Source: Myxococcales bacterium 68-20
GTDB lineage: Bacteria; Myxococcota_A; Polyangia; Polyangiales; Polyangiaceae
NCBI GenBank assembly: GCA_001899635.1
Contig: MKVQ01000012.1
Location: 186,001-250,000 of the forward strand
Reading direction: 5' to 3'
Length of the DNA stretch: 64,000 nucleotides
Part shown: one piece after another, positions 5,710 to 61,888 of the stretch
How the letters are laid out: each line of letters begins with the position of its first letter
Position numbering within the stretch: position 1 is the stretch's first letter
Position numbers and translations under genes: made by a program
The notes under the pieces: model-generated
Databases searched by the model: none
Told to the model about the DNA's origin: nothing
The model's input: only the letters and a program-made list of their open reading frames with translations

Positions 5710-6977
5710 CACGTGCCACCTCGAGGCTGCGCGCCGGGATGGTCATCCCGGGCGCCGCCCTGCTGTTCGTTCTGAGTGGAGCCGGCGCCGGCTGCGCGGA
5801 CACGATCGATATCGGGACCGAGCTCCGCGACGCCGGCGCCGCCGAGAGCGGACCGGTGCTCGTCGCCCCTACGCCTGAAGACGGTGGTGAGGGCGGCGCG
5901 CTGCCCGGCGCACCGCAGAACCTCTGCATCGCGACGACGTGCCCGGCACCGTACGACACGTGCGGAGCAGCCGACCGCTGCTCGACGAATCTCTCGAACG
6001 ATTCGAACAACTGCGGCGCGTGCGGGAAGGTCTGCCCCGAGAGCTTCGGCTACATGAACCTGACCTCCGCGTGCGTGAACGGGAAGTGCGAACCGTCGTG
6101 CCGCAAGAAGCTGCTCTACCCCAGCGGCTTCGAGAACTTTGCAGACTGCAACAAGGTCCTCGAGGACGGGTGCGAGATCAACATCTCGACCGACGATAAC
6201 AACTGCGGCGCGTGCGGGAACAAGTGCGCGGACGGCGTTTCGTGCATCGACGGCAAGTGCGGATGCGACCCCGGATACATTCTCTGCCCAGACCCCTACG
6301 CGGCCAAAGGCAAATGCATCGACGCCCGGCACGACGACGCCAACTGTGGCGCATGCGGTAATCGTTGCGGCACGCCCGCCGACGCCGGCGCACCGCCGGA
6401 CAACATGGTCTACGGCTGCGTCGACAGCCAGTGCGGCCAGCTCAAGTGCGAAGACATGTGGGGCAACACGTGGGCGAACTGCGACAACAACCTGGCGAAC
6501 GGCTGCGAGGTCTATATCGGGACCAACGACAGCCTGATTGACCCGAACAACTGCGGAAAATGCGGGAAGAAGTGCGTCGGCGCGGATCAGGTCTGCACGG
6601 ACGCGAACTACGACTACGTCGCGGAGTGTCTCTGCGAGAAGCCGCACGAGACACGGTGTGGAAGCAAGGATTGGGGGAACCTCGGCTGCTTCGACCTCCT
6701 GAACGATCCCGACAACTGCGGGACCTGCTCCAACAAGTGCACCGCCTACCAGGACAACACGGCGGCGGTATGTCGGAAGGGAGCCTGCGAGCTCGAATGT
6801 TTGCCGGGCTGGGGCGACTGCGACGGCGAACCGGGCAACGGTTGCGAGACGAACCTGAAGAGCAGCGGCGGCCACTGCGGCGCCTGCGGGAACCGTTGTG
6901 ACACCCAAGCTGGCCAGCCGTGCGTCGAAGGCCAGTGCGCGATGACGGAGTGCGACGCAGGAGTTGTAACGCAATGA
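5706..6977 (+). CDS. Cysteine-repeat (NCGxCG) lipoprotein, cassette B
   Basis: 423 residues. The signal ends in a lipobox-like GAGC (Cys30). An Asp/Gly-rich spacer is followed by six cysteine units of the form NCGACGxxC (for example NCGACGKVC and NCGKCGKKC), each preceded by a GC-E or DGCE turn. The protein ends with AGQPCVEGQC. Cysteine is far above normal, implying many disulfides outside the cytoplasm. Proteins of this type are common in myxobacteria, and I believe some are mislabelled in databases as tryptophan synthase alpha chain; there is no TIM-barrel or catalytic pattern here. Its ATG overlaps the previous stop by 4 bases (ATGA), indicating translational coupling. Role unknown; probably a rigid surface spacer. 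Confidence 0.85.
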   Translation: MTRATSRLRAGMVIPGAALLFVLSGAGAGCADTIDIGTELRDAGAAESGPVLVAPTPEDGGEGGALPGAPQNLCIATTCPAPYDTCGAADRCSTNLSNDSNNCGACGKVCPESFGYMNLTSACVNGKCEPSCRKKLLYPSGFENFADCNKVLEDGCEINISTDDNNCGACGNKCADGVSCIDGKCGCDPGYILCPDPYAAKGKCIDARHDDANCGACGNRCGTPADAGAPPDNMVYGCVDSQCGQLKCEDMWGNTWANCDNNLANGCEVYIGTNDSLIDPNNCGKCGKKCVGADQVCTDANYDYVAECLCEKPHETRCGSKDWGNLGCFDLLNDPDNCGTCSNKCTAYQDNTAAVCRKGACELECLPGWGDCDGEPGNGCETNLKSSGGHCGACGNRCDTQAGQPCVEGQCAMTECDAGVVTQ

Positions 6978-8290
6978 GCGCCCCGCGTTCCGAGAACGAG
7001 CTGCGCATCCACGCGGCGGTCGACTGCCCTTCGAAGAAGCCGGTGACGGCGATGCGAGGAATCGTGGCGGCCTCGGGCCTCTTCGGCCTTCTCGTGTTCG
7101 CCACCGCGGTCGCGAGCTGCGCCGAGTCCGAAAGCGCAGTCGCTCCACAAGAACCCCCGACGACGGTTCCCGAGGCGGGGAGCCCGCAGACCGACGCCGC
7201 CGCGGATGCTTCTGCGGACGCCGACTGCCTCGACGCGGGCGACGGAGGCTGCACGACGAACGAGCTCACGTGCGCCGAGGCTGACTTCTGCGCGGTGCCG
7301 ACCGGGGTCGATCTCCGCTATGCGCTCTTCGGCGTCTGGGGCTCGTCGGACAAGGACGTGTGGGCGGTCGGCTCCGCCGGCACGGTCATTCACTGGGACG
7401 GGACCGCGTGGACGGGCGTCCCCCTCGGTCGCAAGGAAACGATGCGCGGCGTGGGCGGCCGCTCGGCGAACGACGTCTTCGTCGTGTCCTCGCTGGACGT
7501 CGTCCTTCACAGCGACGGTTTCAAGAACGGGAGCGCGACCTTCACGGCCGAGCCGACTCTCGATCCCATCGACCCCACGAATTTCATGGGCGCGACGCTG
7601 ACGAAGGTCTGGGCCGCCAATACGGGCGAGCTCTTCGTCGGCGGTCCGGCCACGGCCGGCTGGTCGCCGCCGAACAGTCTCTGGCGCCACCATCCCGGCG
7701 CCGATGAGTATTCCACCTGGGAAGCAGCGTCGACGTATTGCGCGGAAGATCCGTGCCTCAGCGCCAACGACATCTGGGGGACCAGCGCCAGCGACATCTG
7801 GGTCGTCGGACAGAGCGGCGGTCTCCGCCGGTCGAAGGGCCCCGTCGGCAACGGCGGCGGCCCCGAGCAATGGACCAACGTGAAGACGACGGTCACCACT
7901 GCCAATCTCAACGGCATCTGGGGAAGCAGCGCATCGGACGTCTGGATCGTCGGCGACGGCGGGACGATCCGCCACTGGTCGAACGACGGCACGGAGCGCT
8001 GGGAGATCGTGCCGTCGCCGACGAAGGAGAACCTTCGAGCGGTCTGGGGCACGAGCCCGACCGACGCGTGGGCCGTCGGCGATGCAGGAACGATCCTGCA
8101 CTGGGACGGCAAGACCTGGAGCTTCGCCACCGCGACCTTGCCGGTCGGTCCGAAGCCCCGCCTCTACGGCATCTGGGGCAGTGGCCCGAACGACGTCTGG
8201 GTCGTCGGCGAAGCCATCGCGCTCCACTTCACGGGACCGAAGTCCTCCGGGGCCCCACGTACTCGTGGGGAAGCAGACAAGGCCAATTGA
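6974..8290 (+). CDS. WGS-propeller lipoprotein 1, cassette B
   Basis: 438 residues from the ATG that overlaps the preceding stop (ATGA). A second ATG at 7052 would remove a 26-residue hydrophilic lead and leave a cleaner signal peptide with lipobox VASC. After a Pro/Asp-rich spacer come seven blade motifs of the type WGSSxxDVWAVG (for example IWGTSASDIWVVG, IWGSSASDVWIVG, IWGSGPNDVWVVG), typically followed by G-I-HWDG. Seven such motifs suggest a closed seven-bladed propeller. The motif resembles BNR-type repeats but is not the sialidase Asp-box (SxDxGxxW), so no glycosidase activity is claimed. It precedes a second, related propeller by 2 bases. Confidence 0.83.
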   Translation: MSAPRSENELRIHAAVDCPSKKPVTAMRGIVAASGLFGLLVFATAVASCAESESAVAPQEPPTTVPEAGSPQTDAAADASADADCLDAGDGGCTTNELTCAEADFCAVPTGVDLRYALFGVWGSSDKDVWAVGSAGTVIHWDGTAWTGVPLGRKETMRGVGGRSANDVFVVSSLDVVLHSDGFKNGSATFTAEPTLDPIDPTNFMGATLTKVWAANTGELFVGGPATAGWSPPNSLWRHHPGADEYSTWEAASTYCAEDPCLSANDIWGTSASDIWVVGQSGGLRRSKGPVGNGGGPEQWTNVKTTVTTANLNGIWGSSASDVWIVGDGGTIRHWSNDGTERWEIVPSPTKENLRAVWGTSPTDAWAVGDAGTILHWDGKTWSFATATLPVGPKPRLYGIWGSGPNDVWVVGEAIALHFTGPKSSGAPRTRGEADKAN

Positions 8291-8292
8291 CG

Positions 8293-9597
8293 ATGACCCT
8301 CCTCATGAGTCGCCGCATCCTGTTCCCCGCGCTCCTCGCATCGCTCTTCGCCACCTCGGCGATCGCATGCTCGAGCGGCGAAGACACGAAGGGCGTCAGC
8401 GACGACGGACAGCCCGACGCGAGCGCGCCCGACGCCGTGAGCCCGAACGAAGACGAGGACGCCGCGGCTCCGGACGGCAGCGCAAGGCCCGACTCCAGTG
8501 CCGAGCCGCCGCGTACGTGCTCCGATGACAACATCTGCCATACGGCGCTCCCGCCGAAGTCCTTCCTGAGGGACGTCTGGAGCGCTGGCGACGGCGTGGT
8601 CTGGGCCGTTGGGTGGAAGGACAAGCAGCTCCTCGCTGCCGACGGCGTGATCCTTCGCTGGGACGGCACCTCCTGGACCGCGCAGCACAAGGTCCCGCTG
8701 CGCCTCAATGCCGTGTGGGGAAGCAGTCCGACGGACATCTGGGTCGGAGGCGACAGCGGGCTCTTCCACGGGACCGGCCCGTCCTCGGCGCAGATCACGT
8801 GGACCAAGGTGCGGAGCGAGCCCATCGTCTCGATCTGGGGCTCGAGCGCGAACGACGTCTGGGCCGTCGGTCACACGAGGACCTGGAAGGACTTCTTCGA
8901 CGGGCAGGTGCTTCACTATCGAGGACCGAGCGCGGACGGCGGCGACGGTTGGGAGATCGATCCGCTCTCGTCGCGCCCGGCCGCGTACCGCAAGGTCTGG
9001 GGAACGAGCGCCCAGGACGTGTGGATCGGCGGCTCCGAGTTCTCCACGTGCGGATACGATTTCTGCAACGGCTCGCGTGCATTCGCCCTGCACCGGGACC
9101 CCGACGGCGATGGCGGATTCACGTGGAGCGAGGCAGGAGCCGACTTCGTCGGGATCGAGCCCGGGAGTGGCATTCACCGCGGGAGCGAGTTCTCCGGCGG
9201 CGGGTCGATCGGGAGTTCGAATGTCTGGCTGATGGGGAGCAAAGCACCAAAGACGCCCATACCGACTTACGACGCGCTCTTCATCGGCTCGAAGGATGGA
9301 GCCGGCGACTACACCTGGTCCGAGGGAACATTCGGGACGAGCCAGGGGGGTCGCGGCGACTTCGGGCTCTGGTTCAATCGCGCTGTCTGGGGCAAGACCC
9401 CGAACGACGTTTATCTGGCCGGCGACTTCGGCCAGCTCCGGCACTGGAACGGAACGGACTTCTCGCTGGTCAAGACCACGATCGACGCGATCCCGGTGAC
9501 GGCAGCTTTCCATGCCATGTGGGGATCGTCGAGCACCGATCTCTGGATCGTCGGCGACGAGATCGCGCTCCACAAGGTCTCTCCCACCAAACTCTGA
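8293..9597 (+). CDS. WGS-propeller lipoprotein 2, cassette B
   Basis: 434 residues from the ATG 2 bases after the previous stop. Lipobox AIAC (Cys26; a second Met at residue 5 is possible). A Cys-containing lead-in (CHTALPPKSFLRDVW) is followed by seven blade motifs: WAVGW, IWVGG, VWAVG, VWIGG, VWLMG, VYLAG and LWIVG. It ends in EIALHKVSPTKL. It is distinct from propeller 1: the spacing is longer and several blades carry inserts of 40 to 60 residues. The ORF is open far upstream of the chosen start, but that part overlaps propeller 1 out of frame and has no signal peptide. A surface binding role is inferred. Confidence 0.82.
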   Translation: MTLLMSRRILFPALLASLFATSAIACSSGEDTKGVSDDGQPDASAPDAVSPNEDEDAAAPDGSARPDSSAEPPRTCSDDNICHTALPPKSFLRDVWSAGDGVVWAVGWKDKQLLAADGVILRWDGTSWTAQHKVPLRLNAVWGSSPTDIWVGGDSGLFHGTGPSSAQITWTKVRSEPIVSIWGSSANDVWAVGHTRTWKDFFDGQVLHYRGPSADGGDGWEIDPLSSRPAAYRKVWGTSAQDVWIGGSEFSTCGYDFCNGSRAFALHRDPDGDGGFTWSEAGADFVGIEPGSGIHRGSEFSGGGSIGSSNVWLMGSKAPKTPIPTYDALFIGSKDGAGDYTWSEGTFGTSQGGRGDFGLWFNRAVWGKTPNDVYLAGDFGQLRHWNGTDFSLVKTTIDAIPVTAAFHAMWGSSSTDLWIVGDEIALHKVSPTKL

Positions 9598-9614: not shown

Positions 9615-10964
9615 ATGAACCGCCGAGAACGATTCTTCTTCATCGCCTCTGCGCCGCTGGTGGCGGCGAGCGTGCTCCTCGCCTGCAGCGACGACGATCG
9701 CAGAGTCTTCGAGGAGGCGCCCGACGCGGCGCCCGACTCGCGGCCGAACCTCCCCGAGGCCTCGGCTCCGCTCGAGGATGCCGGCGTGATCGACGCCCGT
9801 GTTCCGTTCGATGCGAGCGACGAACCCGTCGTCTGCACCGCGAAGCCGTGCGTCACGCAGCTCGTGGGAGCGGGAAATCACTTCTGCGCGCTCCTCGACG
9901 ACAAGACGGTCCACTGTTGGGGCTCCGCCGCTCAAGCGCTGGGCACCTTCGACGGTGGCGCAGCGTACGGGGCGGCGCAGCCGAGTCCGATGTCGATGGG
10001 CATCGAAGGCGTCGAGCAGATCAGCTCGGCGAACGCGACGACGTGCGCGCTCCTGGCGAACGGCACGGTGACGTGCTGGGGCGCGAACGGCTCGAACGAG
10101 CTCGGCTTCGATCCGCCGGCAGCCAGCTTCCAAGCTCACGACCCCGTGCTCGTCGCGTTCGACGGCGGCGTGCTCGATGGCATCACGCGGGTCGACGTCG
10201 GCCCCGGGATGGTCTTTGCCACGCAGGCCTCCGGCGAGCTCTGGTCGTGGGGCGACAACGGCGACGGCATTCTCGGCCGTATGAACGAACCCGCAGACTA
10301 CCTGAGCGCCGGCAAGGCGACGGATTTGGCCGGCGAGAAGATCTGGCGCGGCGGCGGCGTAGGCTTCCGGTGGGGCTTCACCGGGATCGGCTTCGCGATC
10401 ACCGAAGACCGACGGCTCCTCACGTGGGGAAGGTCGAAGCAAGCGGTCGCGTACCCAGGCCCTGTCCCCGTCGCGGTCGACGGTCTCGAGAACGTGAGCA
10501 GCGCGTCCGCGGTCCAGGACCAGCTCTGCGCGGTAGCCGACGGACGCCTCCATTGCTGGGGACGTAGCGGCCTCAAGGCCTGCTCGGGGACCAACGACGT
10601 CATCACGACCCCGCTCGAGATCCGCACGCAAGGCAAGGCTCCCGCGCAGCAGGTCGCCCTGAACTACGACAATACCTGCGTGAGGCTGACCGACGGCACG
10701 GTCGAGTGCTGCGGGAACGACAACCTCGGGCAGCTCGGAACGGGGATCACCGACGCGGGCGAGCCGGTCTCCGCTCCCGTGTTGACCAAGGCGACGGCCT
10801 TCACGGCGCACGCGGTTCAGATCGCCGTCGGCGCCACCACGATCTGCGCGCTCGTCCAGGGCGGAACGGTGCAGTGCTGGGGCGGCAACGCGGACGGTCA
10901 GCTCGGTCAGGGCACGCGCGATACCGAACGCCATCCCGTCCCCGTCACCGTCAAGTTCGATTGA
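9615..10964 (+). CDS. RCC1-repeat lipoprotein, cassette B
   Basis: 449 residues, the same length as the cassette A copy, and clearly its recent relative: the first 30 residues differ at only a few positions (MNRRERFFFIASAPLV). Lipobox LLAC (Cys24). Seven RCC1 blades, for example CALLANGTVTCWG and CALVQGGTVQCWGG, with the same two cysteine-free blades (ELWSWG, RLLTWG) and the same CCG in blade 6. The ATG lies 17 bases after the propeller 2 stop; the long open frame upstream overlaps that gene and is rejected. A 55-base spacer separates it from the next gene, against 18 in cassette A. Confidence 0.9.
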   Translation: MNRRERFFFIASAPLVAASVLLACSDDDRRVFEEAPDAAPDSRPNLPEASAPLEDAGVIDARVPFDASDEPVVCTAKPCVTQLVGAGNHFCALLDDKTVHCWGSAAQALGTFDGGAAYGAAQPSPMSMGIEGVEQISSANATTCALLANGTVTCWGANGSNELGFDPPAASFQAHDPVLVAFDGGVLDGITRVDVGPGMVFATQASGELWSWGDNGDGILGRMNEPADYLSAGKATDLAGEKIWRGGGVGFRWGFTGIGFAITEDRRLLTWGRSKQAVAYPGPVPVAVDGLENVSSASAVQDQLCAVADGRLHCWGRSGLKACSGTNDVITTPLEIRTQGKAPAQQVALNYDNTCVRLTDGTVECCGNDNLGQLGTGITDAGEPVSAPVLTKATAFTAHAVQIAVGATTICALVQGGTVQCWGGNADGQLGQGTRDTERHPVPVTVKFD

Positions 10965-11019
10965 ACGATTGGAAGCTCGCGCCATGTGGCTCACACCGCG
11001 CCGAGCGAGGAGAGACGTC

Positions 11020-12810
11020 ATGACTCGCTCGGCCTTCGCCATCGCGCTGGGTTCTTTTGCAGCCATCGTCGCCGCGTCCGCGTGCGCGGGGCAGGGCCGT
11101 TCCTTCACGGAAGAGCCGCCCAGGGGGGTGCTCGAGACGGACGCAGAAGCGCCGCCCCCGCCCGATTGCCAAGGCCTCCGCTGCTCGCGCGATCTGAAAC
11201 GGGTCGTCGACGGGTGCACCGAAGAGGGCGTCCAGGAGTGCGGGCCGGAAAAAGGCTGCGCGAACGGCGCGTGCGTCGACCCGTGTGCCGCCGCGGAGCT
11301 CGCGAAGGGCTCGACGGGATGCTCCTTCGTCACGCTTCCGCCGGACGAGGCCGAGTACGGCGCCGGCTCCTGCTTCGCGGCGATGATCGCGAACACGTGG
11401 GACCTTCCCGTGAACATCACGGCCGAGCACGGCACGACCCCGCTCGATCTCGGCCAATCGGTCTTCACGGCGGAGACGAGCGGCACGGAGGTGACGTACA
11501 CGAAGCTCGAAGGCCCGCTCCAGCCGGGACAGGTCGCGCTCGTCTTTCTCTCCGAGCTCCGCCCCGCCCCGAATCCCTCGGTCAATGATGTCTTCTCCGC
11601 CTGTCCGATCGGCACCGTCGGGGCGTTCAACGGCGATCCGATCGATCACGGCACGACCCTGACGAAGGCGTTCACGATCAAGACGGACGCGCCCGTGAGC
11701 GCGTACTCGATCTTCCCATACGGCGGAGCGAAGACCCACTTCCCCACCGCGACGCTCCTCTTGCCGACATCGTCGTGGAGCGGGAACTACGTCGCCGTGA
11801 ACGGGTGGCCGATGACGCGCGACCGCTTCGGCAAACCGATCGGAGCCCCGACGCTCCAGATCGTCGCGACCGCGGACGATACCGAGGTGCGCATGCGGCC
11901 GAAGGTCGACGTCCACGACGGCGCGGGAGTCACCGGGGTCGCGGCCGGACAGATGGCCGTGTGGAAGCTCTCGCGCGGACAGGTCATCCAGATCACCCAG
12001 CCCGAGGAGCTCACCGGAAGCCCGATCGAGTCGACGAAGCCCATCGCCGTCTTCGGTGGAAACCGCTGCACGCTCGTCCCCGGGCCCGTCCAGGCGTGCG
12101 ACACGCTCCAGCAGCAGATCCCACCGCTCGGACAGTGGGGCTCCGAATACGCGCTCGTCCCCTACCGTGACCGATTCGGAGGCAAGGCCGAGCGCCGCGA
12201 GACCGTTCCATACCGCCTCGTCGGCGCCGTCGACGGCACCGTCCTCACATACGATCCGGCGAAGCCCCGCGAGGCTCCTTCGACACTCCGCGCGGGCGAG
12301 GTCGTCTCGTTCACGACCGACGAGCTCGTGGTGGTGAAGAGCCAGGACAACGAGCACCCGTTCTACACGGCCGTGATGATGACCGGAGCCCTCTTCAATA
12401 GCGGTGTCGGAGCTCCGAGCGACGGCGATCCCGACTTCGTCAACGTCGTTCCCACCGATCAGTTCCTCGACCGCTACGTCTTCTTTGCAGATTACACATT
12501 CCCGGAGACCACGCTCACGCTCGTGCGCCGGAAGACGGCCAAGGGCTTCATGCCCGTCGAGCTCGATTGCCTGGGTGAGGTGAAGACGTTCCGCCCGCTC
12601 GGCGCCACCGGCGAGTACGAATACGCGTGGGTCGATCTGACGAAGAGCTTCACCTCGGCGAGCGGCACGTGCGGGGCGGGCCGTCGCGAGGCCAAGAGCG
12701 ACGGACCGTTCTCGATCACCGTCTGGGGCATGGGCTACTGCGCGAGCTACGGCTACGCGGGTGGAGCAGGCAGCCGACCGCTCACGCAGGTCGAAGCCCC
12801 CGTGCGCTGA
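11020..12810 (+). CDS. IgGFc-binding-like lipoprotein, cassette B
   Basis: 596 residues. Lipobox ASAC (Cys22), the Cys-rich lead (RCSRDLKRVVDGC), then the IgGFc-binding-like region with SIFPYGGAKTHFPTATLL, QQQIPPLGQWGSEY, YVFFADYTFPETTLTLV and the terminal DGPFSITVWGMG. The start was set at the ATG preceded by GAGCGAGGAGAGA. An upstream in-frame TTG at 10969 would add 17 residues before the signal and is less likely. It differs from cassette A mainly in the spacer and in a short insertion near PAPNPSVNDVF. Last gene of cassette B; cassette C begins about 120 bases later on the same strand. Confidence 0.88.
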   Translation: MTRSAFAIALGSFAAIVAASACAGQGRSFTEEPPRGVLETDAEAPPPPDCQGLRCSRDLKRVVDGCTEEGVQECGPEKGCANGACVDPCAAAELAKGSTGCSFVTLPPDEAEYGAGSCFAAMIANTWDLPVNITAEHGTTPLDLGQSVFTAETSGTEVTYTKLEGPLQPGQVALVFLSELRPAPNPSVNDVFSACPIGTVGAFNGDPIDHGTTLTKAFTIKTDAPVSAYSIFPYGGAKTHFPTATLLLPTSSWSGNYVAVNGWPMTRDRFGKPIGAPTLQIVATADDTEVRMRPKVDVHDGAGVTGVAAGQMAVWKLSRGQVIQITQPEELTGSPIESTKPIAVFGGNRCTLVPGPVQACDTLQQQIPPLGQWGSEYALVPYRDRFGGKAERRETVPYRLVGAVDGTVLTYDPAKPREAPSTLRAGEVVSFTTDELVVVKSQDNEHPFYTAVMMTGALFNSGVGAPSDGDPDFVNVVPTDQFLDRYVFFADYTFPETTLTLVRRKTAKGFMPVELDCLGEVKTFRPLGATGEYEYAWVDLTKSFTSASGTCGAGRREAKSDGPFSITVWGMGYCASYGYAGGAGSRPLTQVEAPVR

Positions 12811-12881: not shown

Positions 12882-12926
12882 CGTTTGGCCTTGCGCTGCC
12901 TCGGCCCTTTCGCTCACGCTCAGGCG

Positions 12927-14036
12927 ATGCGGGACGACCGGGCGCGAGCTCCCTCATCGGGCATCGGCGCCCGGCGCCGTCGTGCGATCGCGTGCGCGTG
13001 CGCCCTCGCCACGGGCTCGAGCGCCCTCGTGTCGCTCGCGCAGCACGGGATGCCGCCCGAGCACGGGAAGGTTCGCCTCGTGTGGGTCCGCGGCACCGAC
13101 ACCGACTCGTGCGCGACGCGCGAGGAGCTGATGAGAAGCGTCGTCACGCGCCTCGGCTACGACCCCTTCTCCGAGGACGGCTCGCGCCTGGTGGTGGGCA
13201 GCGTCACCCACACGCGAGGTCGCTACGTCATCACGCTTCGTGCCGACGACAGCGACGCCTCGAGTCCAACCCGGCAACTCGAGAGCAGCATCGACGACTG
13301 TTCATCGGTCGGTCAGGCCGCGGCGCTCGCGCTCGCGCTCGACATCGAGGCAACCAGCCTCGCTCCCTCCCGATCCACCGATGCCGCCGTGCTCGAGTCT
13401 TCCGCTCCGCCGCTCGAGGTGGAGCTCGACGCCTCGGCCAAAAGCGAGCTCCGCACGAATGCCGTCGCGACTCCTGGCGCTCCGCGAGACGCCGGTTCCA
13501 TCGAAGCGGGCATCAAGGCTCCGACGGCCCCCTCTCGACGTGGCGCCTCGGCATCCGTCGGCATGGCGGGCTCGTTCGGTCTGCTCCCGCGCGCGGCCGC
13601 CGGTGTCGACGTGGCGGGCATCGTTCATTTCGACGGGCCGCTCTCGTTGTCGGTGGGCATGGCCCACTTTCCCGAAGTCTCCGCGGACGACCCGAGGTTC
13701 TCCTTCGGCTCGACGCTTCTCCGAGCAGGAGCCTGCCTCGATCTGTTCTCGTCCGGCCCGGACCGTCTCGACGGGTGCGCTCACGCCGTCGTCGGGAGCA
13801 CACATTCGGTGGTCGAAGAGCTCCAGCCGGTCGCGTCAGGTCCGAGGCGTTTCGCAGCGCCGGCGCTCGGCCTGCGGTACTCGCGGTCGTTCGGACCTCT
13901 CGTCCTCTCCGTGGGCGGCAACGTTCTCGCGCCGTTCCCGCGCTACCAGTTCGACGTGCTGGGCACGAATCGAGTGGCATTCGCCCCATCGACTGTGGCT
14001 GCGCTTGCGAATGTGGCGATCGGCGCGGGCTTTTGA
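12927..14036 (+). CDS. Secreted two-domain protein with barrel-like C-terminus, cassette C gene 1
   Basis: 369 residues from ATG 12927; in-frame TTG codons at 12885 and 12891 give longer versions. Signal-like hydrophobic stretch at about residues 20-37. The N-terminal domain has two cysteines (Cys62, Cys125) bracketing LGYDPFSEDGSRLVVGS, equivalent to the LGRPVF motif of cassette B. A variable, Ala/Ser/Pro-rich middle follows. The C-terminal half is strand-rich, with repeated short hydrophobic strands such as LSVGMAHFPEVS and LVLSVGGNVLAPFP. Sequence similarity to the other gene 1 proteins is weak beyond the N-domain, so this is the fastest-diverging cassette gene. Predicted envelope protein of unknown function. 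Confidence 0.7.
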   Translation: MRDDRARAPSSGIGARRRRAIACACALATGSSALVSLAQHGMPPEHGKVRLVWVRGTDTDSCATREELMRSVVTRLGYDPFSEDGSRLVVGSVTHTRGRYVITLRADDSDASSPTRQLESSIDDCSSVGQAAALALALDIEATSLAPSRSTDAAVLESSAPPLEVELDASAKSELRTNAVATPGAPRDAGSIEAGIKAPTAPSRRGASASVGMAGSFGLLPRAAAGVDVAGIVHFDGPLSLSVGMAHFPEVSADDPRFSFGSTLLRAGACLDLFSSGPDRLDGCAHAVVGSTHSVVEELQPVASGPRRFAAPALGLRYSRSFGPLVLSVGGNVLAPFPRYQFDVLGTNRVAFAPSTVAALANVAIGAGF

Positions 14037-14108: not shown

Positions 14109-14696
14109 GTGAACACGGCGCTCGCCGAACGGCCACCTGTGAGCCATGCTGGCGAGGTCCCAGCCGTGCCCGATATTGTCGAGCTTTATCGGCAACACCG
14201 CGCCTTCGTGTGGGGTTCCCTCTCGCGGCTCGGTGTTCGGTCCGAAGACCTCGAAGACGTGCTCCAGGACGTCTTCATCACCGTGCATCGACGGTTGCCG
14301 GAGTTCGACGGCACCCGAGCGAGCCTCCGGACCTGGCTGTTCGTCATCTGCCGGGGCGTCGCTTCCAACCATCGGCGCAGCCTGCAAACACGCCACGCAG
14401 CGGTCGCCCAGAGCGCCGCGGAGCCCCGGCTCGTCGACGACGTGAGCCCCGAAGAAGCGGCCGCGCGCGCCCAAGCGAAGGCTCGCCTCGACTCCATCCT
14501 CGCCGAGATGTCCTTCGAGAAGCGGATCACGTTCCTGATGTACGAGGTCGACCGAATGTCCACGGAGGACATCGCCGAGATCCTCGGAGTCGAGAAGGGC
14601 ACGGTGTTCTCGCGCCTGCACGCTGCACGTCGGGAGTTCGAACGTGGCGTTCGACGGCTGCAGCTCCTCGATCTCGTCAAAGAGAAGGCCAAATGA
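14109..14696 (+). CDS. ECF-type RNA polymerase sigma factor, cassette C
   Basis: 195 residues from a GTG. Region 2: VELYRQHRAFVWGSLSRLG, DLEDVLQDVFITVHRRL and LRTWLFVICRGVASNHRRS (about 22-95). Region 4: MSFEKRITFLMYEVDRMS, then EDIAEILGVEKGTVFSRLHA (about 130-180). There is no region 3 or C-terminal extension. It is coupled to the membrane protein by an ATGA overlap. The recognition helix (VEKGTVFSRLHA) differs clearly from that of cassette B (CPVKTAYSRLAA), which hints at different promoter specificity for each cassette (inference). Confidence 0.9.
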   Translation: MNTALAERPPVSHAGEVPAVPDIVELYRQHRAFVWGSLSRLGVRSEDLEDVLQDVFITVHRRLPEFDGTRASLRTWLFVICRGVASNHRRSLQTRHAAVAQSAAEPRLVDDVSPEEAAARAQAKARLDSILAEMSFEKRITFLMYEVDRMSTEDIAEILGVEKGTVFSRLHAARREFERGVRRLQLLDLVKEKAK

Positions 14697-15394
14697 GAGA
14701 GCCGACCGAAGCACCTCCTCGCTACGCAGATCTGGGCGCCTCCGAAGGACGGCTCCTCGACCTCTTGCGCACGCCGGAGATGAGCGCCGAGCAAATCGCT
14801 CGATGCGAACGACGCGTCGTCGAGCTGGCGAAGGCGCCACCCGCCCCCACTGCCACGGGGACCGGCGCCCTGAAGATCGCGGCCGTCGCGCTGGTCGTGG
14901 TGCCCCTCACCCTCTTCGGTCTGAGCGAGTTGCGAGACGTCGATCGACCGCTCGTCCGATCGGTGCAGGTCGAAGCCCCTCTCCCCGCCACGACTTCGAC
15001 GCTGCCCTCGACGGAAGCCCTACCGACGATCGACGTCGACAGTCTCCCCACCGCAGCGGAGAGCGCGCCGAAGCTCGCCGAGCCGCGCACGACGCCGACG
15101 CCTCGCGCGCCGACCGACAGACTCGCTCGCGAGCTCGCATTGCTCGACCACGCGCGCGCGGTGCTGGGGACCGCCCCGGAGGCGGCACTACGCGACGTCG
15201 ATCGACACGCGCGTGACTTCTCCGATGGGCAGCTCGTTGCCGAACGTGAGGTCATCGCCGTCGACGCTCTGAAACGTCTCGGGCGGATGAGCGAAGCGCG
15301 CGCGCGAGGCAAGGCGTTCTCCGAGCGTGCTCCCGGCACCTCCGCCGCGCGCCGCATCGACACCTTGCTCGACGGGCTGCCTGCCCATCCCTGA
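14693..15394 (+). CDS. Single-pass membrane TPR-like protein, probable anti-sigma/sensor, cassette C
   Basis: 233 residues from the ATG overlapping the sigma stop. Cytoplasmic N-terminus (1-58), transmembrane helix about 61-78 (KIAAVALVVVPLTLFGL), Pro/Thr/Ser-rich linker to about 140, and a C-terminal helical domain (ELALLDHARAVLG, EREVIAVDALKRLG, ARARGKAFSERAPG) matching the TPR-like tails of the other cassettes. The ZAS zinc motif is absent. The N-terminal part is poorly conserved between cassettes while the extracytoplasmic tail is better conserved, as expected if the N-terminus co-evolves with its own sigma. Function inferred from context. Confidence 0.7.
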   Translation: MREPTEAPPRYADLGASEGRLLDLLRTPEMSAEQIARCERRVVELAKAPPAPTATGTGALKIAAVALVVVPLTLFGLSELRDVDRPLVRSVQVEAPLPATTSTLPSTEALPTIDVDSLPTAAESAPKLAEPRTTPTPRAPTDRLARELALLDHARAVLGTAPEAALRDVDRHARDFSDGQLVAEREVIAVDALKRLGRMSEARARGKAFSERAPGTSAARRIDTLLDGLPAHP

Positions 15395-20506: not shown

Positions 20507-20567
20507 CCGACCCACCTTCGAGAGCTCGCGCCGCGTGGCTCACACGCGCCGAGCGAGGAGAAACGCC

Positions 20568-29230: not shown

Positions 29231-29240
29231 CGACTCTGCC

Positions 29241-34342: not shown

Positions 34343-34390
34343 TCACCGGCGGAACTGCCGAGAATGCTCGAATCGATCTCGAAATCGTCC

Positions 34391-34399: not shown

Positions 34400-34419
34400 C
34401 GGAACCTTCCAGCTTCGTC

Positions 34420-44532: not shown

Positions 44533-44561
44533 TCGTCCCGAGCGGCGGGCATGACCCGACC

Positions 44562-45921: not shown

Positions 45922-46005
45922 ATGAACCCATCGCGCGTAGAGCGAACGGTCCGCCGCCTCCTTGACGGGAGCCTGTTTCTCCTGAACGGACGGCGAGAGC
46001 AATGA
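45922..46005 (+). CDS. Small upstream ORF (27 codons), cassette E
   Basis: An ATG-initiated frame of 27 codons (MNPSRVERTVRRLLDGSLFL...) whose TGA overlaps the ATG of the cysteine-repeat gene by 4 bases, repeating the ATGA coupling used throughout the cassette. The encoded peptide is basic then hydrophobic. It could be a leader whose translation controls entry to the next gene, or a chance frame. No counterpart was found in the other cassettes. Confidence 0.35.
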   Translation: MNPSRVERTVRRLLDGSLFLLNGRREQ

Positions 46006-56270: not shown

Positions 56271-58055
56271 TCAGTGAACCGAACCGAGCGGCGCTTCGAC
56301 GAGCTTCCGCTGAGCCATGCCGCCGGGATAGGCGTAGCTGGCGGCGTAATCCCAACCCCATAGCGTCGCGGTGAACGGGCCCTCGCTCTTCATGCGCTGG
56401 AGGCCGTTCTGGCAGATGCTCTCTCCGAAGCTCTCGCCTGCACGGCCGTTCCGAGCAAGGTCGACGCGCAGGTACTCGTACTCGCCACGAGTTCCGACGG
56501 GCTTCCATCCCGTCAGGTTGCCGGCGCACTCGAGCCACACATCCCTGAACTCACCACGGAGCTTCGCCCGCACGACGACAAGCGAGGTCTCGCCGAACGT
56601 CGGATCCGCGTAGAAGCTGTACGCGTTCAGGTATTGGCCCGCCGGGACGATATTGACGAACTCCGGATCGCCGCGCCCTCCGTATGACTTGGCCGTCTTG
56701 CCGTCGCCGGAGCTGCCCGTCATGTACGCCGCGACATAGATCGGATGTTCGGTGTCCTGCGTGCGAACGACGAAGGCGTCCCCCGTCCCCTGGCGGAACG
56801 TCACCGTCTCGCCGGCGTTCATCATCGTCGGAGCCCCCGGAGGGATCTCGGGATCGTATTCGAGCATCGTTCCGTCGCGGGCCGCGACGATCCGATACGG
56901 CACGGCCTCGTGCTCGTTACCGAGGCGCGGGCGGTAGGCGACGCCCACGTACTCGGATCCCCAGTGCTCGAAAGCGGGGATCTGCTGCGCGAGGATATCG
57001 CACGTGGCCGCGGTCGCCGGGACGTCGCCGCAGCTGTGTCCACCGAAGCTCGTGGTCGGTTTGGTCGAGGTGATGATGCTGCCGGTAAGCTCCTCGTCCT
57101 GGACGATTCGCAAGTACTGGCCCTTGCCGAGCATGTACTTCGCCGGACGGCCTGCGCGACCGCCCTTGACCCCCTCGCCGTCTTGGATGTCCCGCTTGGG
57201 GAGGATCGTGACCTCGGTCTCGTCCTCGGATGCAACGATCTGGATCCCCGGACTGCCGCTCTCCGACGCCTCCCATCCGTTGACGAGGATGTGCTCCTTC
57301 GCCCACGACGCGACGGGGAGAATGAGACCTGCCGTCGGGACGTAGCTCGTCGCTCCGCCGAAGGGATACATCGCCGCCAACGACACCGGCGCGTTCGTCT
57401 GCAGGCGGAAGGACGATCCGACACCGGTACCGCCCGTCAGCGTCTGAGCGAACGTTGCCGGGGTCACCCCGGCTGGACAGGCCTTGTAGCTGAGCTCCCA
57501 CTCGATGTTGCGCGGCATCTCCGGCGAGGCATCCGAGAGGAAGACGATGACGCTCTCACCGACAGGGATCGGCCCGGTGTGCTGCAGCAGCGTCGCGCTG
57601 CCCGGCTTCGTCAGGAACATCGTCTTCGAGACGTCGACGGGCTCGCCCGCGAGCTCGAGCGAGAGCTCGACGGGCTGGTTCGACGTGTTCACGACGAACG
57701 CGGCGTAGCAGGACGGGGGCAGACGCTTCATGAGCTGCGGAGACTGGAAGTAGAAGTCGCAGCCGTTCGAGCTTCGGTCCTCCGCCGCGGCGGCGCACGG
57801 CTCGATGCACTTGGCGCCACCGCAGGCGAGGTGGTCCGGGCACGTCTCGACGACGGTGCCCGTGCAGGCTTCGACGATCGAGCGTCCGTCGAGCGAGCAC
57901 TGGTGACGGCAGTCCGGCGCATCGACCGACGCATCGGGCGAGAAGCTCTGGTCGATCTGCTTGAAGCCACCCCTGTCTTGTCCGCAGGCGCTCAGGCACG
58001 CAGCGGGGAGAGCGATGCCTAGGACGGCGGCGGTCAACCAGTGCTGACGGTTCAT
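56271..58055 (-). CDS. IgGFc-binding-like lipoprotein, cassette F
   Basis: 594 residues from the ATG overlapping the RCC1 stop. Lipobox LSAC (Cys24; PAAC at Cys20 is an alternative). Cys-rich lead HQCSLDGRSIVEAC. Landmarks: MYPFGGATSYVPTAGLIL, AQQIPAFEHWGSEY, VPAGQYLNAYSFYADPTF, EGPFTATLWGWD. Closest relative is cassette E (shared QCSLDGR lead, SFYAD and SEGPF motifs). Last gene of cassette F. Confidence 0.87.
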   Translation of the reverse strand: MNRQHWLTAAVLGIALPAACLSACGQDRGGFKQIDQSFSPDASVDAPDCRHQCSLDGRSIVEACTGTVVETCPDHLACGGAKCIEPCAAAAEDRSSNGCDFYFQSPQLMKRLPPSCYAAFVVNTSNQPVELSLELAGEPVDVSKTMFLTKPGSATLLQHTGPIPVGESVIVFLSDASPEMPRNIEWELSYKACPAGVTPATFAQTLTGGTGVGSSFRLQTNAPVSLAAMYPFGGATSYVPTAGLILPVASWAKEHILVNGWEASESGSPGIQIVASEDETEVTILPKRDIQDGEGVKGGRAGRPAKYMLGKGQYLRIVQDEELTGSIITSTKPTTSFGGHSCGDVPATAATCDILAQQIPAFEHWGSEYVGVAYRPRLGNEHEAVPYRIVAARDGTMLEYDPEIPPGAPTMMNAGETVTFRQGTGDAFVVRTQDTEHPIYVAAYMTGSSGDGKTAKSYGGRGDPEFVNIVPAGQYLNAYSFYADPTFGETSLVVVRAKLRGEFRDVWLECAGNLTGWKPVGTRGEYEYLRVDLARNGRAGESFGESICQNGLQRMKSEGPFTATLWGWDYAASYAYPGGMAQRKLVEAPLGSVH

Positions 58056-59440
58056 TGAAACACCACTTCCTGCGGGACGAGACTCGGTGCGCGCATTTTT
58101 CCGTTCCCAAGCTGTCCGTAGTAGTTCGTTCCCCAGCAATGGACCTTGCCAGTCGTCAAGAGCGCGCACGTGGAGTCGGGCAAGGTCCTCACCTCGACAG
58201 CGGGTCCCGGTAGGCCCTTCACCTTGACCGGCTCGTACGCGTGCTCCTTCGTCCCATCGCCGGCCTGACCGCCCGCGTTGTATCCCCAGCAGTACACCGC
58301 GCCCGACGCGCCCACGGCGCACCAGCGCTGCGGCTGCTTGACGATCGCGCCGGCCTGAGCGCTCTGGAAAGCTCGCGTCGTCGCGATCTGCACGACGGGC
58401 TCCGGCGTAGCGACGGGCTCTGGAACGAAGCGATCGAACAGCGGGTTCGTAACGGCGCGTCCCCAGCAGTAGCCGATGCCGGAAGTCGTCGCGCACGCGC
58501 TGTCGGACGTCAGATCGATCGAGGAGATCCCGGCAAGCGGGATCGCCATCGGATTCGGATCGGGCGACATCGACGAGATGCGTCCGAGCGGCGGGTTCGT
58601 TCCCCAGCTGAGCGTCACGCCATCCTCGCGAACGGCGAACGCCGCTCTGCCGAGAGTAAGCTCGCGGATCGGCGCCCCGGTCGGAATGCCGATCGACGTG
58701 GGAGGGAGAGTGGCGCTCGCAGGAGCGACATCGGGCGGTGCGATGAGGCCGTTGCTGTTCCTCCCCCAGCAGCGGACCCCGTCGTCGACGACGGCGCAGC
58801 TGACGTCGAGGGCGGTGGCCACGCGCTTCGCGGGCGGCAGCGCAAGCTTCACCGGCGTGCGCTCGGTCGTAGAAGCGCCAGCGTCGTTGCGGAGGAACGC
58901 TCCCGTTCCCCAGCACCAAACGCCGCCGTCCTTGTCGACCGCGCACGTATGATCGAGCTGGACGACGTCCGACAGCGCCTCGACGCGCATCGCGGTCGCG
59001 CTATCCTTCGTTCCCGCATCGTCACCACGGCCGAGCTGTCCGTAAGCGTTCGAGCCCCAGCACGCCACCGTGCCGTCGTCGAGCAGTGCGCAGTAGCCCT
59101 CGAAGTACTCGTAATCGACCGGCGGCCGCGTCGTCGTGAGCGACTTCACGCACGGCTTCGAGGTGCAGGAGATCGGCAGTGGGCCGCCGTCGAAGGGCGC
59201 CGCGTCGCGCGACGGCGTGGTCGGGGCATCGGGATCCCCTGCGTCGACGACCGGTCCGGCTTCAGCCGGCACCGACGCCTCCGGCGCTGCGTCGGCCTGC
59301 TCGAACGATGTTCCCGTCTCGTCGCTCGAGCAACTCACGATCGTCGATCCGGCGGTCAGGCCGACGAGGATGGTGAGGGCGATCGATGAACGTCGAACCA
59401 CGGAAGAATACCGATCAAGGAGTCGTCTTGTGGAGCGCAT
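58052..59440 (-). CDS. RCC1-repeat lipoprotein, cassette F
   Basis: 462 residues from the ATG that gives MRSTRRLLDR; another ATG at 59452 adds four residues. The 26-base overlap with the previous gene is the same as in E. Signal ends IVSC (Cys37). Seven RCC1 blades: CALLDDGTVACWG, CAVDKDGGVWCWG, CAVVDDGVRCWG, FAVREDGVTLSWG, CATTSGIGYCWG, CAVGASGAVYCWG, CALLTTGKVHCWG. As in E, only blade 4 lacks its Cys pair. Confidence 0.87.
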   Translation of the reverse strand: MRSTRRLLDRYSSVVRRSSIALTILVGLTAGSTIVSCSSDETGTSFEQADAAPEASVPAEAGPVVDAGDPDAPTTPSRDAAPFDGGPLPISCTSKPCVKSLTTTRPPVDYEYFEGYCALLDDGTVACWGSNAYGQLGRGDDAGTKDSATAMRVEALSDVVQLDHTCAVDKDGGVWCWGTGAFLRNDAGASTTERTPVKLALPPAKRVATALDVSCAVVDDGVRCWGRNSNGLIAPPDVAPASATLPPTSIGIPTGAPIRELTLGRAAFAVREDGVTLSWGTNPPLGRISSMSPDPNPMAIPLAGISSIDLTSDSACATTSGIGYCWGRAVTNPLFDRFVPEPVATPEPVVQIATTRAFQSAQAGAIVKQPQRWCAVGASGAVYCWGYNAGGQAGDGTKEHAYEPVKVKGLPGPAVEVRTLPDSTCALLTTGKVHCWGTNYYGQLGNGKMRAPSLVPQEVVFQ

Positions 59441-60707
59441 ACCGGACACCAATTGCCCATAGGTTGGAATTGGACGTGCCTCGAACCCGGTAGATCGGCC
59501 AGGTCAACGGCGCTCCGTTCAACGAGCTCGAGGAGATCTCGAAGGCCCCTCCGTCCCACACTCCAGCGCCGCGAACGATCAGACCTGTGCCGCCGAGCCA
59601 GAGATCTCCTTCAGTGCTCGACAGCGAGTTGAGTCCATTGGCGGACAGCGTCGTCGGGATCGAAGCGGGCGCGACGGAGTAGCTGTCGGAATCGACCGAG
59701 ATCTTCACCACGTCGCGAGCGCCCTTGAGGGCGACGATCGCTTCCGGCGAAAGGACCTCGATGTCCGTCAGCCAGCCTTCCGCTCCGCCGACCAGGAGGT
59801 GATCCGCGCGCGGCTTGCATGCCTGGTTGATACTGCCGGCGATGCCGTCGGCGATCCGCTCCCAGCCCGTAGACGTTCTGCGCACGAGGAGCGCGCAGCC
59901 CGAGAGGAGTCGCGTGCGCGCGCCGGCAAACCAGACATCGTCCGCGCTCTTCCCAGCCGCAGCGAAGAAGTACATCTGCTCCGCGGGGACATCGGTATCG
60001 GCTGCGACGTACACGGGGACCCACTCGGGCGCCCCGCCGTCGACGCTCGACCTTTGATAGATGGTGCCCTTGAACCAGGCGTAGACGTCGGTGCTGCTCG
60101 TCCCCCAGATCCCGAGCGCGGGCGTACGCGCCGATCCCGGACGCTTCCAATACGTGGGATTCCCGTCGTCGGGATCCACGCCGCTACTCGTTCCTATCGA
60201 GTCATGCGCCCATGACCAGGGCAGCCCGGGCGCTGTTCGTGTTCCGCGGAACACGTAGTTGGGTGAGACTCCGAAGTAGACCTCGTTCTCGGTCGGCGCC
60301 CAGATCCTCCCCGCCCATCGACCTCGCCCGTCCTCGTTCTGCGAGCCGTCGTCGATGTACGTCCACTTGGCGTCGGAATCGACCCATTCGAGGACCTTCA
60401 CGCCGAGCGTGGGACTCTCCGCGATGGCGAAAGCACGCCCCGCGAGCGGCCACAGGTCCTTCATCATGAGGTCCGAGTCAGGCAAGTCGGTGATGCACCA
60501 GCCGGCCCCGCTGCACCTGGGCGGCTCTACGACGGAAGCCTCGCCGCCCGCGTCGGCCTCGGTCGTTCCGCCCTCCGTGACCGGGGCCACGCTCGTCCCG
60601 GAGTCGTGCTCCGGCAATGACGTTCCGTCATTGTCCCCTTTCGCTGCACAGGCCATGACCGCGGCCGCGGCAAACGCGATCGATCCGATGAAGAACGACG
60701 CCCTCAT
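59415..60707 (-). CDS. WGS-propeller lipoprotein 2, cassette F
   Basis: 430 residues from the ATG overlapping the previous stop; the open frame extends further upstream but overlaps propeller 1. Lipobox VMAC (Cys20). Lead-in CSGAGWCITDLPDSDLMMKD matches E. Blades are degenerate as in E: AFAIAE, VYFGV, VYAWFK, DVWFAG, IVALKG, DLWLGG, NLWAIG. Ends ALHKTTP. This subfamily has drifted away from the regular WGS motif. Confidence 0.78.
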   Translation of the reverse strand: MRASFFIGSIAFAAAAVMACAAKGDNDGTSLPEHDSGTSVAPVTEGGTTEADAGGEASVVEPPRCSGAGWCITDLPDSDLMMKDLWPLAGRAFAIAESPTLGVKVLEWVDSDAKWTYIDDGSQNEDGRGRWAGRIWAPTENEVYFGVSPNYVFRGTRTAPGLPWSWAHDSIGTSSGVDPDDGNPTYWKRPGSARTPALGIWGTSSTDVYAWFKGTIYQRSSVDGGAPEWVPVYVAADTDVPAEQMYFFAAAGKSADDVWFAGARTRLLSGCALLVRRTSTGWERIADGIAGSINQACKPRADHLLVGGAEGWLTDIEVLSPEAIVALKGARDVVKISVDSDSYSVAPASIPTTLSANGLNSLSSTEGDLWLGGTGLIVRGAGVWDGGAFEISSSSLNGAPLTWPIYRVRGTSNSNLWAIGVRYALHKTTP

Positions 60708-61888
60708 GGCGTTCCTCCGAGAGAGAGAACGACGCCCTGCCCACCGATCCAGACGTGACCGGGGGCGGGCCCCCAGACGGTGGTGAGGTTCGGCCGATAG
60801 GAGCCGAGACCGGCGACCTTCACACGCGACCAGCCCGCGCCGTCGTAGTGAAGGACGACCCCCGAATCGCCGACCGCCCAGATGTCGGACGACGAAAAGC
60901 CCCAGACGGCGTTGAGATTGACGCTCGTCGGGACGTTCGAGACGATCTCCCAGAGCAGCGGGTCTCCCGTGTAGTGCCGGATCGTCCCGCGCGCTCCGAC
61001 GGACCAGGCATCGGATGCAGTCGCTTCCCAGACGCCGTTCAGCGCGTTCATCGTCTGGCTGTTGAACCCCCTGGCCTTCGGCGTGGCGCCCTCGGCGCCC
61101 TTGATGCGGACCGTCGCGCCCCCCGCCCCGACCGCCCAGAGCTCGCTCGCCGTTGCGCCGTGGATGCTCCCGACGTGGTTGCATCCGACCGTCCGGCACA
61201 CGGAAGCCGGGATGCCCGTCGCGCCCTCGAACGCGCCAGACGGCGACTGGCGCAGGCGCCAGAGTCCGCCGTTCGCCCCCTTCGACGCGCACCAGAGCCA
61301 CTCGGCGCCCGGGACCGCCCATGCACCGGCGAAGACCCCGTCAGGCGGCTCTTGACCGGGTGCATAGGTCGCAGCGTGAACCGTCCACCCGCCGGGAGAC
61401 GGAGGCGCGCCTCCGTCGGGCGGGTCGACACCACGCACGAAGAACTCGGCCAGTCCTCCAAAGGCGACCTCCGCGCCGGGAGGCAGCCAGAGCGCACGCA
61501 TCGTTTGCTGCGTCGTCGGGTCGGAGCGCGTCCACGACGTCCCGTCGAAGTGGGCGAGGCCTCCGACCGCGCCGGCGGCCCAGACGTCGTTCGCCGAACG
61601 ACCGCGGATGGCGTTGATCGTGGTCCGGAGGTCGAGGCTGCTCTCGCTGTTCGGATCGAACGGGCCGTTCGGGCAGAACACGTCGAGTGAGCACTCGGCG
61701 GGGAAGTACTCGCAGTCGGAGCACGGTCCCGCGTCGAAGTCCGCCGTCGGGCCATCGGCGCCGGCGTCCGATGGAGCCCCCGCATCAGGCACACGAACCT
61801 CGGTCGAAGGTCCCGTGTACTCGGTGTGCTCCGCGGTTGCGGTGCACGCCGCAGCGCCCGCGATGACGAAGATCCAGACGGTCCTCAT
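60704..61888 (-). CDS. WGS-propeller lipoprotein 1, cassette F
   Basis: 394 residues from the ATG overlapping the previous stop; a longer upstream frame lacks a signal. Lipobox AAAC (Cys15). Lead-in CEYFPAECSLDVFC mirrors E. Seven blade positions: DVWAAG, EVAFGG, WLWCAS, ELWAVG, DAWSVG, DIWAVG, HVWIGG. C-terminus VLSLGGTP. Probable seven-bladed surface propeller. Confidence 0.8.
   Translation of the reverse strand: MRTVWIFVIAGAAACTATAEHTEYTGPSTEVRVPDAGAPSDAGADGPTADFDAGPCSDCEYFPAECSLDVFCPNGPFDPNSESSLDLRTTINAIRGRSANDVWAAGAVGGLAHFDGTSWTRSDPTTQQTMRALWLPPGAEVAFGGLAEFFVRGVDPPDGGAPPSPGGWTVHAATYAPGQEPPDGVFAGAWAVPGAEWLWCASKGANGGLWRLRQSPSGAFEGATGIPASVCRTVGCNHVGSIHGATASELWAVGAGGATVRIKGAEGATPKARGFNSQTMNALNGVWEATASDAWSVGARGTIRHYTGDPLLWEIVSNVPTSVNLNAVWGFSSSDIWAVGDSGVVLHYDGAGWSRVKVAGLGSYRPNLTTVWGPAPGHVWIGGQGVVLSLGGTP

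What the first reader, a model, noticed from the sequence alone, without database searches (positions are those of the whole stretch)
6974..61888. Three probable seven-bladed propellers encoded side by side in each cassette
Both WGS-repeat proteins and the RCC1 protein each show seven blade motifs, so one operon would make three different propeller lipoproteins of similar size. A co-assembled three-propeller surface complex appears undescribed.
Basis: partly seen in the sequence, partly recalled or inferred. Interest (0 to 1): 0.7.

Follow-up and report, generated by a model that had tools for sequence, protein, structure and literature searches.

The report
Swappable three-propeller surface lipoprotein operons
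A soil bacterium carries well over a hundred copies of one operon, each pairing its own gene switch with a set of five probable outer-membrane lipoproteins, three of them ring-shaped propellers, and the sets appear to have been swapped as whole blocks between switches during evolution.

Summary
The three neighbouring proteins are very probably propellers. AlphaFold2 models of both WGS proteins of one cassette are closed seven-bladed propellers; the third is an RCC1 protein by sequence. "In each cassette" is nearly right: window cassette D has no RCC1; 122 of 128 cassettes genome-wide have all three.

Following the cassettes gave the larger result. This Labilithrix-type genome holds 128, 9.2% of its DNA. 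Each has a head (barrel-like MP, ECF sigma, anti-sigma candidate) and a payload (Cys-rich, WGS1, WGS2, RCC1, IgGFc_binding-domain lipoproteins). Payload genes share one history (distance r 0.83-0.95), as do head genes (0.74-0.76); head and payload are nearly uncorrelated (0.04-0.13; 1 of 47 supported splits shared). Payload blocks 71-88% identical in DNA mostly sit behind unrelated sigmas (36 of 38 pairs); similarity starts inside the Cys-rich gene and stops at the last stop codon. Two of 12 orthologous heads in a sister species carry a different payload.

Payloads thus appear to be exchanged as intact sets, which indirectly supports a co-adapted complex. Assembly, surface position and ligand are inferred.

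The parts
3291..4352 (+). Cassette B MP: N-terminal domain plus small outer-membrane-barrel-like protein (head)
   Evidence: no Pfam hit; 102 of 121 heads have a member, distances track sigma r 0.76; C-terminal Phe in 29 of 102; barrel is inferred
4374..4946 (+). Cassette B ECF sigma factor (head)
   Evidence: PF04542 and PF08281 over cut-off
4948..5709 (+). Cassette B anti-sigma candidate: one hydrophobic segment, weak TPR-like C-terminus (head)
   Evidence: TPR matches below cut-off; one segment in 81 of 93 copies; distances track sigma r 0.74
5706..6977 (+). Cassette B Cys-rich lipoprotein; junction gene, leader tends to go with head, core with payload
   Evidence: PF04885 over cut-off, NF041328 below cut-off
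6974..8290 (+). Cassette B WGS1 propeller lipoprotein
   Evidence: homologue modelled
8293..9597 (+). Cassette B WGS2 propeller lipoprotein
   Evidence: homologue modelled
9615..10964 (+). Cassette B RCC1 propeller lipoprotein
   Evidence: PF13540, PF00415 over cut-off
10969..12810 (+). Cassette B IgGFc_binding-domain lipoprotein
   Evidence: PF17517 E 4.2e-104
12885..14036 (+). Cassette C MP (start codon uncertain)
14109..14696 (+). Cassette C ECF sigma
   Evidence: HMM walk
14693..15373 (+). Cassette C anti-sigma candidate
15415..16632 (+). Cassette C Cys-rich lipoprotein
16629..17852 (+). Cassette C WGS1, modelled: seven-bladed propeller at about residues 74-401
17849..19144 (+). Cassette C WGS2, modelled: seven-bladed propeller at about residues 76-429
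19163..20506 (+). Cassette C RCC1 lipoprotein
20535..22361 (+). Cassette C IgGFc_binding-domain lipoprotein
57..1406 (+). Cassette A RCC1 (rest of the cassette lies left of the window)
1425..3206 (+). Cassette A IgGFc_binding-domain lipoprotein
27301..35484 (-). Cassette D: MP, sigma, anti-sigma, Cys-rich, WGS1 (30485-31807), WGS2 (29241-30488), Fc (27301-29100); no RCC1
43450..45877 (+). Cassette E head: MP (start about 43450), sigma 44562-45140, anti-sigma 45137-45877
46002..47189 (+). Cassette E Cys-rich lipoprotein
47186..48391 (+). Cassette E WGS1
   Evidence: weak PSII_BNR/YCF48 match, below cut-off
48388..49692 (+). Cassette E WGS2
49667..51091 (+). Cassette E RCC1 (start uncertain)
51088..52890 (+). 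Cassette E IgGFc_binding-domain lipoprotein
56271..63863 (-). Cassette F: anti-sigma 63120-63863, Cys-rich 61885-63123, WGS1 60704-61888, WGS2 59415-60707, RCC1 58052-59440, Fc 56271-58055

Best explanation
Each cassette is a self-contained signal-to-surface unit. Head: a small outer-membrane-barrel-like protein (MP), a one-TM anti-sigma and an ECF sigma sense an envelope signal and switch on the operon. Payload: five lipoproteins (Cys-rich, WGS1 and WGS2 seven-bladed propellers, an RCC1 propeller, an IgGFc_binding-domain protein) are made together and act as one co-adapted assembly at the outer membrane, most likely for binding or recognition (matrix, prey, kin or a glycan). The genome keeps 128 such units. 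Payload blocks are copied or swapped between loci as wholes while the heads stay, so combinations of switch and surface set are reshuffled. Shown by sequence: gene content, payload blocks behind unrelated heads, intactness of the payload, separate histories of head and payload. Predicted: propeller folds of WGS1 and WGS2. Inferred: lipid anchoring, sigma/anti-sigma pairing, autoregulation, physical assembly, surface location, recognition role.
For: 122 of 128 cassettes have W1+W2+RCC1. Two closed seven-bladed models (VIA Z 30.2 over 289 and 28.7 over 281 residues). Lipobox-like signal in CYS 74/128, W1 82/118, W2 66/118, RCC 93/124, FC 108/128, against MP 1/43 and ANT 0/93. Distance correlations: payload 0.83-0.95, SIG-ANT 0.74, head-payload 0.05-0.13 over 82 cassettes; MP-SIG 0.76, MP-FC 0.05. 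Trees of 108 cassettes: SIG shares 1 of 47 supported splits with each payload tree, payload trees share 31-41 with each other. 38 close payload pairs in 33 cassettes and 12 clusters: 0 internally discordant, sigma at background in 36. Block ends: left median 16.5 bp before the first core Cys codon of CYS, right median 1 bp past the FC stop. Sister genome: 2 of 12 orthologous heads with a different payload. dN/dS 0.23-0.63 in 10 close pairs.
Against: Linkage alone can keep a block together: long exchange tracts with no homology outside would look intact without any complex. Of 31 close sigma pairs, only 15 have FC at background, so about half still have somewhat related payloads: re-pairing is slow, not free. 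No complex was modelled and no fusion found. Six of 128 cassettes lack W2 and/or RCC1, so the trio is not strictly needed. No common ECF-type promoter motif was found upstream of MP (3 of 98 against 1.1 expected), so autoregulation has no sequence support. MP shows a C-terminal Phe in only 29 of 102. Nothing here shows a ligand or surface exposure.
Confidence: 0.5

Rival explanations
1. Co-regulated but separate lipoproteins: five surface proteins are made together and carried as one block only because they are linked, each binding its own ligand without forming a complex.
For: No fusions; block ends coincide with the limits of homology, so tract length may be set by homology alone; three cassettes lack W2, two lack RCC1 and one lacks both.
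Against: No internally discordant pair among 38; propeller trees conflict with one another less (2-5 splits) than adjacent pairs outside the trio, CYS-W1 (9-10) and RCC-FC (8-10). This may partly reflect tree resolution.
Confidence: 0.3
2. Glycan or nutrient capture units working like Bacteroidetes polysaccharide utilization loci: ECF sigma/anti-sigma heads sense a substrate through an outer-membrane protein and induce binding lipoproteins.
For: Same logic of head and surface lipoproteins; in B. [quoted passage not shown]
Against: No SusC, SusD or enzyme family over a cut-off among the ten proteins scanned, which were eight of cassette B and two WGS proteins of cassette E.
Confidence: 0.15
3. 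Mainly selfish or neutral amplification: the cassette multiplied and exchanges by recombination without a selected repertoire function.
For: Copy number is very uneven among relatives: 141 PF17517 matches in G000, 46 in G003, 17 in G006, 0-12 in the other 35 genomes; these counts include PF17517 genes outside cassettes.
Against: dN/dS 0.23-0.63 in all five payload genes of 10 close pairs; among 128 cassettes only one WGS1 and perhaps one RCC1 look split into two frames. Both point to purifying selection.
Confidence: 0.05

Closest known systems
Bacteroidetes polysaccharide utilization loci with ECF sigma/anti-sigma regulators
   Same: Many operons with their own ECF sigma/anti-sigma pair and an outer-membrane protein, inducing surface proteins (PMC3878776 and PMC10766802, passages).
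   Different: No SusC/SusD or enzyme found in the ten proteins scanned; payload is three propellers, a Cys-rich and an IgGFc_binding-domain protein; 128 copies; payload blocks exchanged between heads.
YCF48/HCF136 seven-bladed propellers
   Same: Best Foldseek matches of both WGS models (E 3.9e-13 and 1.2e-10); weak sequence similarity of W1. That YCF48 has seven blades is recalled.
   Different: Below the PF14870 cut-off (22.7 against 27 bits for one of four WGS proteins scanned, no listed match for the other three); probable lipoproteins of a non-photosynthetic bacterium.
RCC1-repeat proteins (RCC1, UVR8, HERC)
   Same: RCC1 repeats over the Pfam cut-offs; nearest solved chains HERC1 and UVR8.
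   Different: Probable lipoprotein, operonic, multicopy; PF25390 below cut-off (137.5 against 150); no exchange-factor role implied.
Myxobacterial RCC1-like proteins noted in Haliangium ochraceum
   Same: RCC1-domain gene family in myxobacteria (15 genes; PMC3035250, passages).
   Different: No cassette, head or block exchange in the passages seen.

Membership tests
Seven-bladed beta-propeller (WGS1, WGS2) | closed ring of seven four-stranded blades | tested here: met
   strand lists of models mb9465a594d5f and m2eb3d508ef78; VIA Z 29.7 (rmsd 2.4, 276 aligned) and 28.3 (rmsd 2.4, 270 aligned) to 7big_A, titled a 7-bladed designer protein; prediction only, cassette C only
YCF48 family (PF14870) | Pfam score over the curated cut-off | tested here: not met
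   22.7 against 27 bits for E WGS1; not listed for B WGS1, B WGS2, E WGS2
RCC1 repeat family | PF00415 / PF13540 repeats over the cut-off | tested here: met
   60.8 and 104.4 bits for B RCC1
RCC1 repeat family | seven repeats forming a closed propeller | tested here: inconclusive
   seven motifs by eye in window copies; regex finds seven in 42 of 124; not folded
IgGFc_binding (PF17517) | domain match over the cut-off | tested here: met
   348.4 bits against 25.6
IgGFc_binding (PF17517) | binding of IgG Fc | not testable with these tools
   family name only; no assay
ECF sigma factor with anti-sigma | sigma regions 2 and 4 | tested here: met
   PF04542 and PF08281 over cut-off for cassette B
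ECF sigma factor with anti-sigma | adjacent one-TM partner with matching history | tested here: met
   one hydrophobic segment in 81 of 93, none in 12; SIG-ANT r 0.74; no known anti-sigma domain found
ECF sigma factor with anti-sigma | sigma binds anti-sigma and autoregulates | not testable with these tools
   no shared promoter motif found
Bacteroidetes PUL | SusC/SusD pair or glycan enzymes | tested here: not met
   none over a cut-off in ten cassette proteins scanned

The most novel reading that the evidence does not exclude
The genome holds a combinatorial surface repertoire: more than a hundred distinct signal-sensing ECF heads and a pool of matched five-lipoprotein assemblies, re-paired over evolution by block exchange with a junction inside the Cys-rich gene, whose leader stays with the head and whose core travels with the propellers. 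The Cys-rich leader may tie the assembly to its own sensor.
Probability: 0.4. Interest if true: 0.88.

Novelty: new variant of a known kind. Interest (0 to 1): 0.74.

Why it matters
About a tenth of a bacterial genome given to one repeated sense-and-display operon would make social or predatory recognition in this group directly testable. Re-pairing of heads and payloads is a natural experiment on how ECF switches are insulated from one another and how multi-protein surface sets are kept matched. The uncharacterised bacterial IgGFc_binding-domain, WGS-repeat and RCC1 lipoproteins would gain a shared context.

Tried and rejected
Gene fusions between payload proteins as evidence of contact: none found in the G000 and G003 stretches. 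An early count of cassettes with one WGS gene (nine) was partly a classification artefact of overlapping frames; four truly lack a called WGS2. Common ECF promoter motif upstream of MP: not above shuffles. Large internal chimeras of the payload: residual outliers reach only z 3.7-5.7, and splits in conflict between payload trees are few but not zero (2-14). WGS and RCC1 as one family: profile comparison aligns only the signal peptides, while WGS1 and WGS2 align along their whole length (E 1.8e-48). Solved relatives of the Fc protein by sequence: none at E 0.01. Papers: 8 searches. The searches for IgGFc binding protein with myxobacteria, RCC1 repeat with myxobacteria and ECF, and ECF with gene conversion, lipoprotein and paralogous operons gave no paper; the others gave listings, from which I read passages of three papers. 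Subscription papers and preprints are not held.

Limits: cassettes were found from PF17517 hits, so any without that gene are missed; HMMs were trained on the genome's own copies; distances are uncorrected identities; the 38 close pairs fall into 12 clusters, so they are not independent; 82 and 108 cassettes were used because only those had all the genes called; the CYS leader test finds the leader by a pattern that picks a wrong site in some copies; G003 gave 28 usable cassettes from 35 regions, for 46 hits. Of 141 PF17517 matches in G000, 133 outside the window were used to choose regions, six lie in the window, and two small fragments were left out. The anti-sigma gene was called in only 93 of the 128 cassettes.
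Full report
What is in the window. The window lies in an 11.9 Mb genome. Most of it is repeated cassettes with a fixed gene order: MP, ECF sigma, anti-sigma candidate, Cys-rich protein, WGS1, WGS2, RCC1, IgGFc_binding-domain protein (FC). Cassettes B, C, E and F carry WGS1, WGS2 and RCC1 side by side. D has no RCC1. A has only RCC1 and FC inside the window. For cassette B, Pfam confirms ECF sigma, STIG1-like Cys-rich, RCC1 and IgGFc_binding; WGS1, WGS2, MP and the anti-sigma candidate have no family over a cut-off.

Are they propellers? AlphaFold2 models of the cassette C WGS proteins, built on shallow alignments of 17 and 18 sequences, are confident in the core (216 of 407 and 194 of 431 residues at pLDDT 90 or more; the first 60-70 residues are disordered). 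By my reading of the strand lists they have seven four-stranded blades closed by an N-terminal strand. The best Foldseek matches are YCF48 chains for both; VIA-align gives Z 30.2 (rmsd 3.2, 289 aligned) and 28.7 (rmsd 2.7, 281 aligned) to virginiamycin B lyase chains, tied with many other propellers, among them a designer protein titled 7-bladed. WGS1 and WGS2 are full-length homologues; RCC1 shows no similarity to WGS1 beyond the signal peptide. RCC1 was not folded.

How many cassettes? PF17517 has 141 matches in this genome. Regions around the hits (1.56 Mb including the window) were read with HMMs built from the window copies. 128 cassettes have CYS through FC; 122 have W1, W2 and RCC1 (114 plain, 7 with a second RCC1 match in range, one of which may be a split gene, and 1 with WGS1 split into two pieces), three lack W2, two lack RCC1, one lacks both. 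They span 1.10 Mb, 9.2% of the genome. Searching 38 genomes (the own one and 37 relatives) with one WGS2 protein at E 1e-10 finds it in six of the 12 of the same genus, plus one weak partial match elsewhere in the order; a single query may miss distant copies. In the named collection 13 of 26 loci carry WGS or RCC1 payload genes near FC and all 13 are Labilithrix records; the other 13 show FC without them, some on short contigs (the own genome is left out there). G003 contigs have the same lengths as contigs of record JAHBWA, Labilithrix sp. ACE_MYX5 (my comparison).

Two modules with separate histories. Over 82 cassettes with all seven genes called, pairwise distances of CYS, W1, W2, RCC and FC correlate at 0.83-0.95, SIG-ANT at 0.74, and head with payload at 0.05-0.13 (SIG-FC 0.049 against a permutation maximum of 0.098). 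MP follows sigma (0.76), not FC (0.05; 102 MP). FastTree trees of 108 cassettes: the sigma tree shares 1 of its 47 supported splits with each payload tree and 46 conflict; payload trees share 31-41 with each other. Sigma is not simply saturated: pairs up to 82% identical exist, and among 31 close sigma pairs 22 of the 25 with both anti-sigmas called have close anti-sigmas. Of those 31, 15 have FC at background and the rest have somewhat related payloads, so the separation is strong but not complete for recent relatives.

Block exchange. 38 pairs have a payload gene at scaled identity 0.6 or more (scaled: 0 at the genome median, 1 at identity). None is internally discordant (no payload gene below 0.25; CYS is the lowest in all 38, minimum 0.28), and sigma is at background in 36; the two exceptions have sigma identity 0.51 and 0.73. 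The window's own example is cassettes A and B: FC 84% identical, sigma 30%. DNA identity rises inside CYS and falls at the FC stop: 28 of 38 blocks are 6.5-6.9 kb; mean identity 71-88%; left end median 16.5 bp before the first core Cys (IQR -694 to -3.5; ten pairs have further similar stretches upstream or downstream), right end median +1 bp (IQR -3 to 6; profiles of 12 pairs). The CYS leader tends to go with the head: score ratio 0.24 for head-close, payload-far pairs (30), 0.14 for the reverse (32), 0.10 at random (367); across genomes 0.74 where both are orthologous (9) and 0.45 where only the head is (3). CYS has higher dS (0.38-0.83) than the other payload genes (0.18-0.54) in 10 close pairs, as expected if junctions differ within it.

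Time scale. Between G003 and G000, 13 pairs with sigma identity of 0.75 or more involve 12 distinct G003 heads. Ten keep a payload with FC 0.74-0.94, though for two of these (C319, C341) another G000 locus matches the FC slightly better. Two do not: C290:29779 (sigma 0.82, anti-sigma 0.81, payload 0.35-0.55, its payload matching another G000 locus at 0.69-0.82) and C321:37993 (sigma 0.76, FC 0.40). So re-pairing has probably gone on since these species parted, though slowly; loss of the true orthologue cannot be excluded for these two.

Meaning. Five lipoprotein genes that stay together while their regulators are exchanged most simply encode a matched set. The three propeller trees conflict least among themselves (2-5 splits), less than adjacent pairs outside the trio (8-10), though tree resolution differs. 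The head resembles the cell-surface signalling logic of PUL regulators, where anti-sigma factors interact with an outer-membrane porin (PMC3878776, passages). Selection on the payload is purifying (dN/dS 0.23-0.63, 10 pairs), so the copies tested are in use. Surface location, assembly and ligand remain inference.

Noticed in passing
window 27301-35484: Cassette D has both WGS genes but lacks RCC1; one other cassette of G000 (C48:348859) does too.
   Followed up: yes
L173 2386-3722: In another Labilithrix record sigma and anti-sigma lie on the strand opposite to a complete payload, a head placed divergently.
   Followed up: no
G000 contigs 21, 36, 42, 45, 49, downstream of FC: Five cassettes have a second RCC1-like match right after FC.
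   Followed up: no
G000 C16:17780-26023 and C19:65545: WGS1 is split into two open frames in one cassette, and RCC1 perhaps in another: likely frameshifts.
   Followed up: no
G000 C9:49854-54818, C4:487760-490601: A few IgGFc_binding-domain genes stand alone or in pairs without a cassette.
   Followed up: no
window 23341-25314: Large secreted protein with a GDS-type hydrolase-like motif and an Ig-like or cadherin-like C-terminal repeat between cassettes (by eye, motifs recalled).
   Followed up: no
whole genome G000: RCC1 repeats are very numerous: 150 of 811 first-look candidates were scored and all 150 match.
   Followed up: partly
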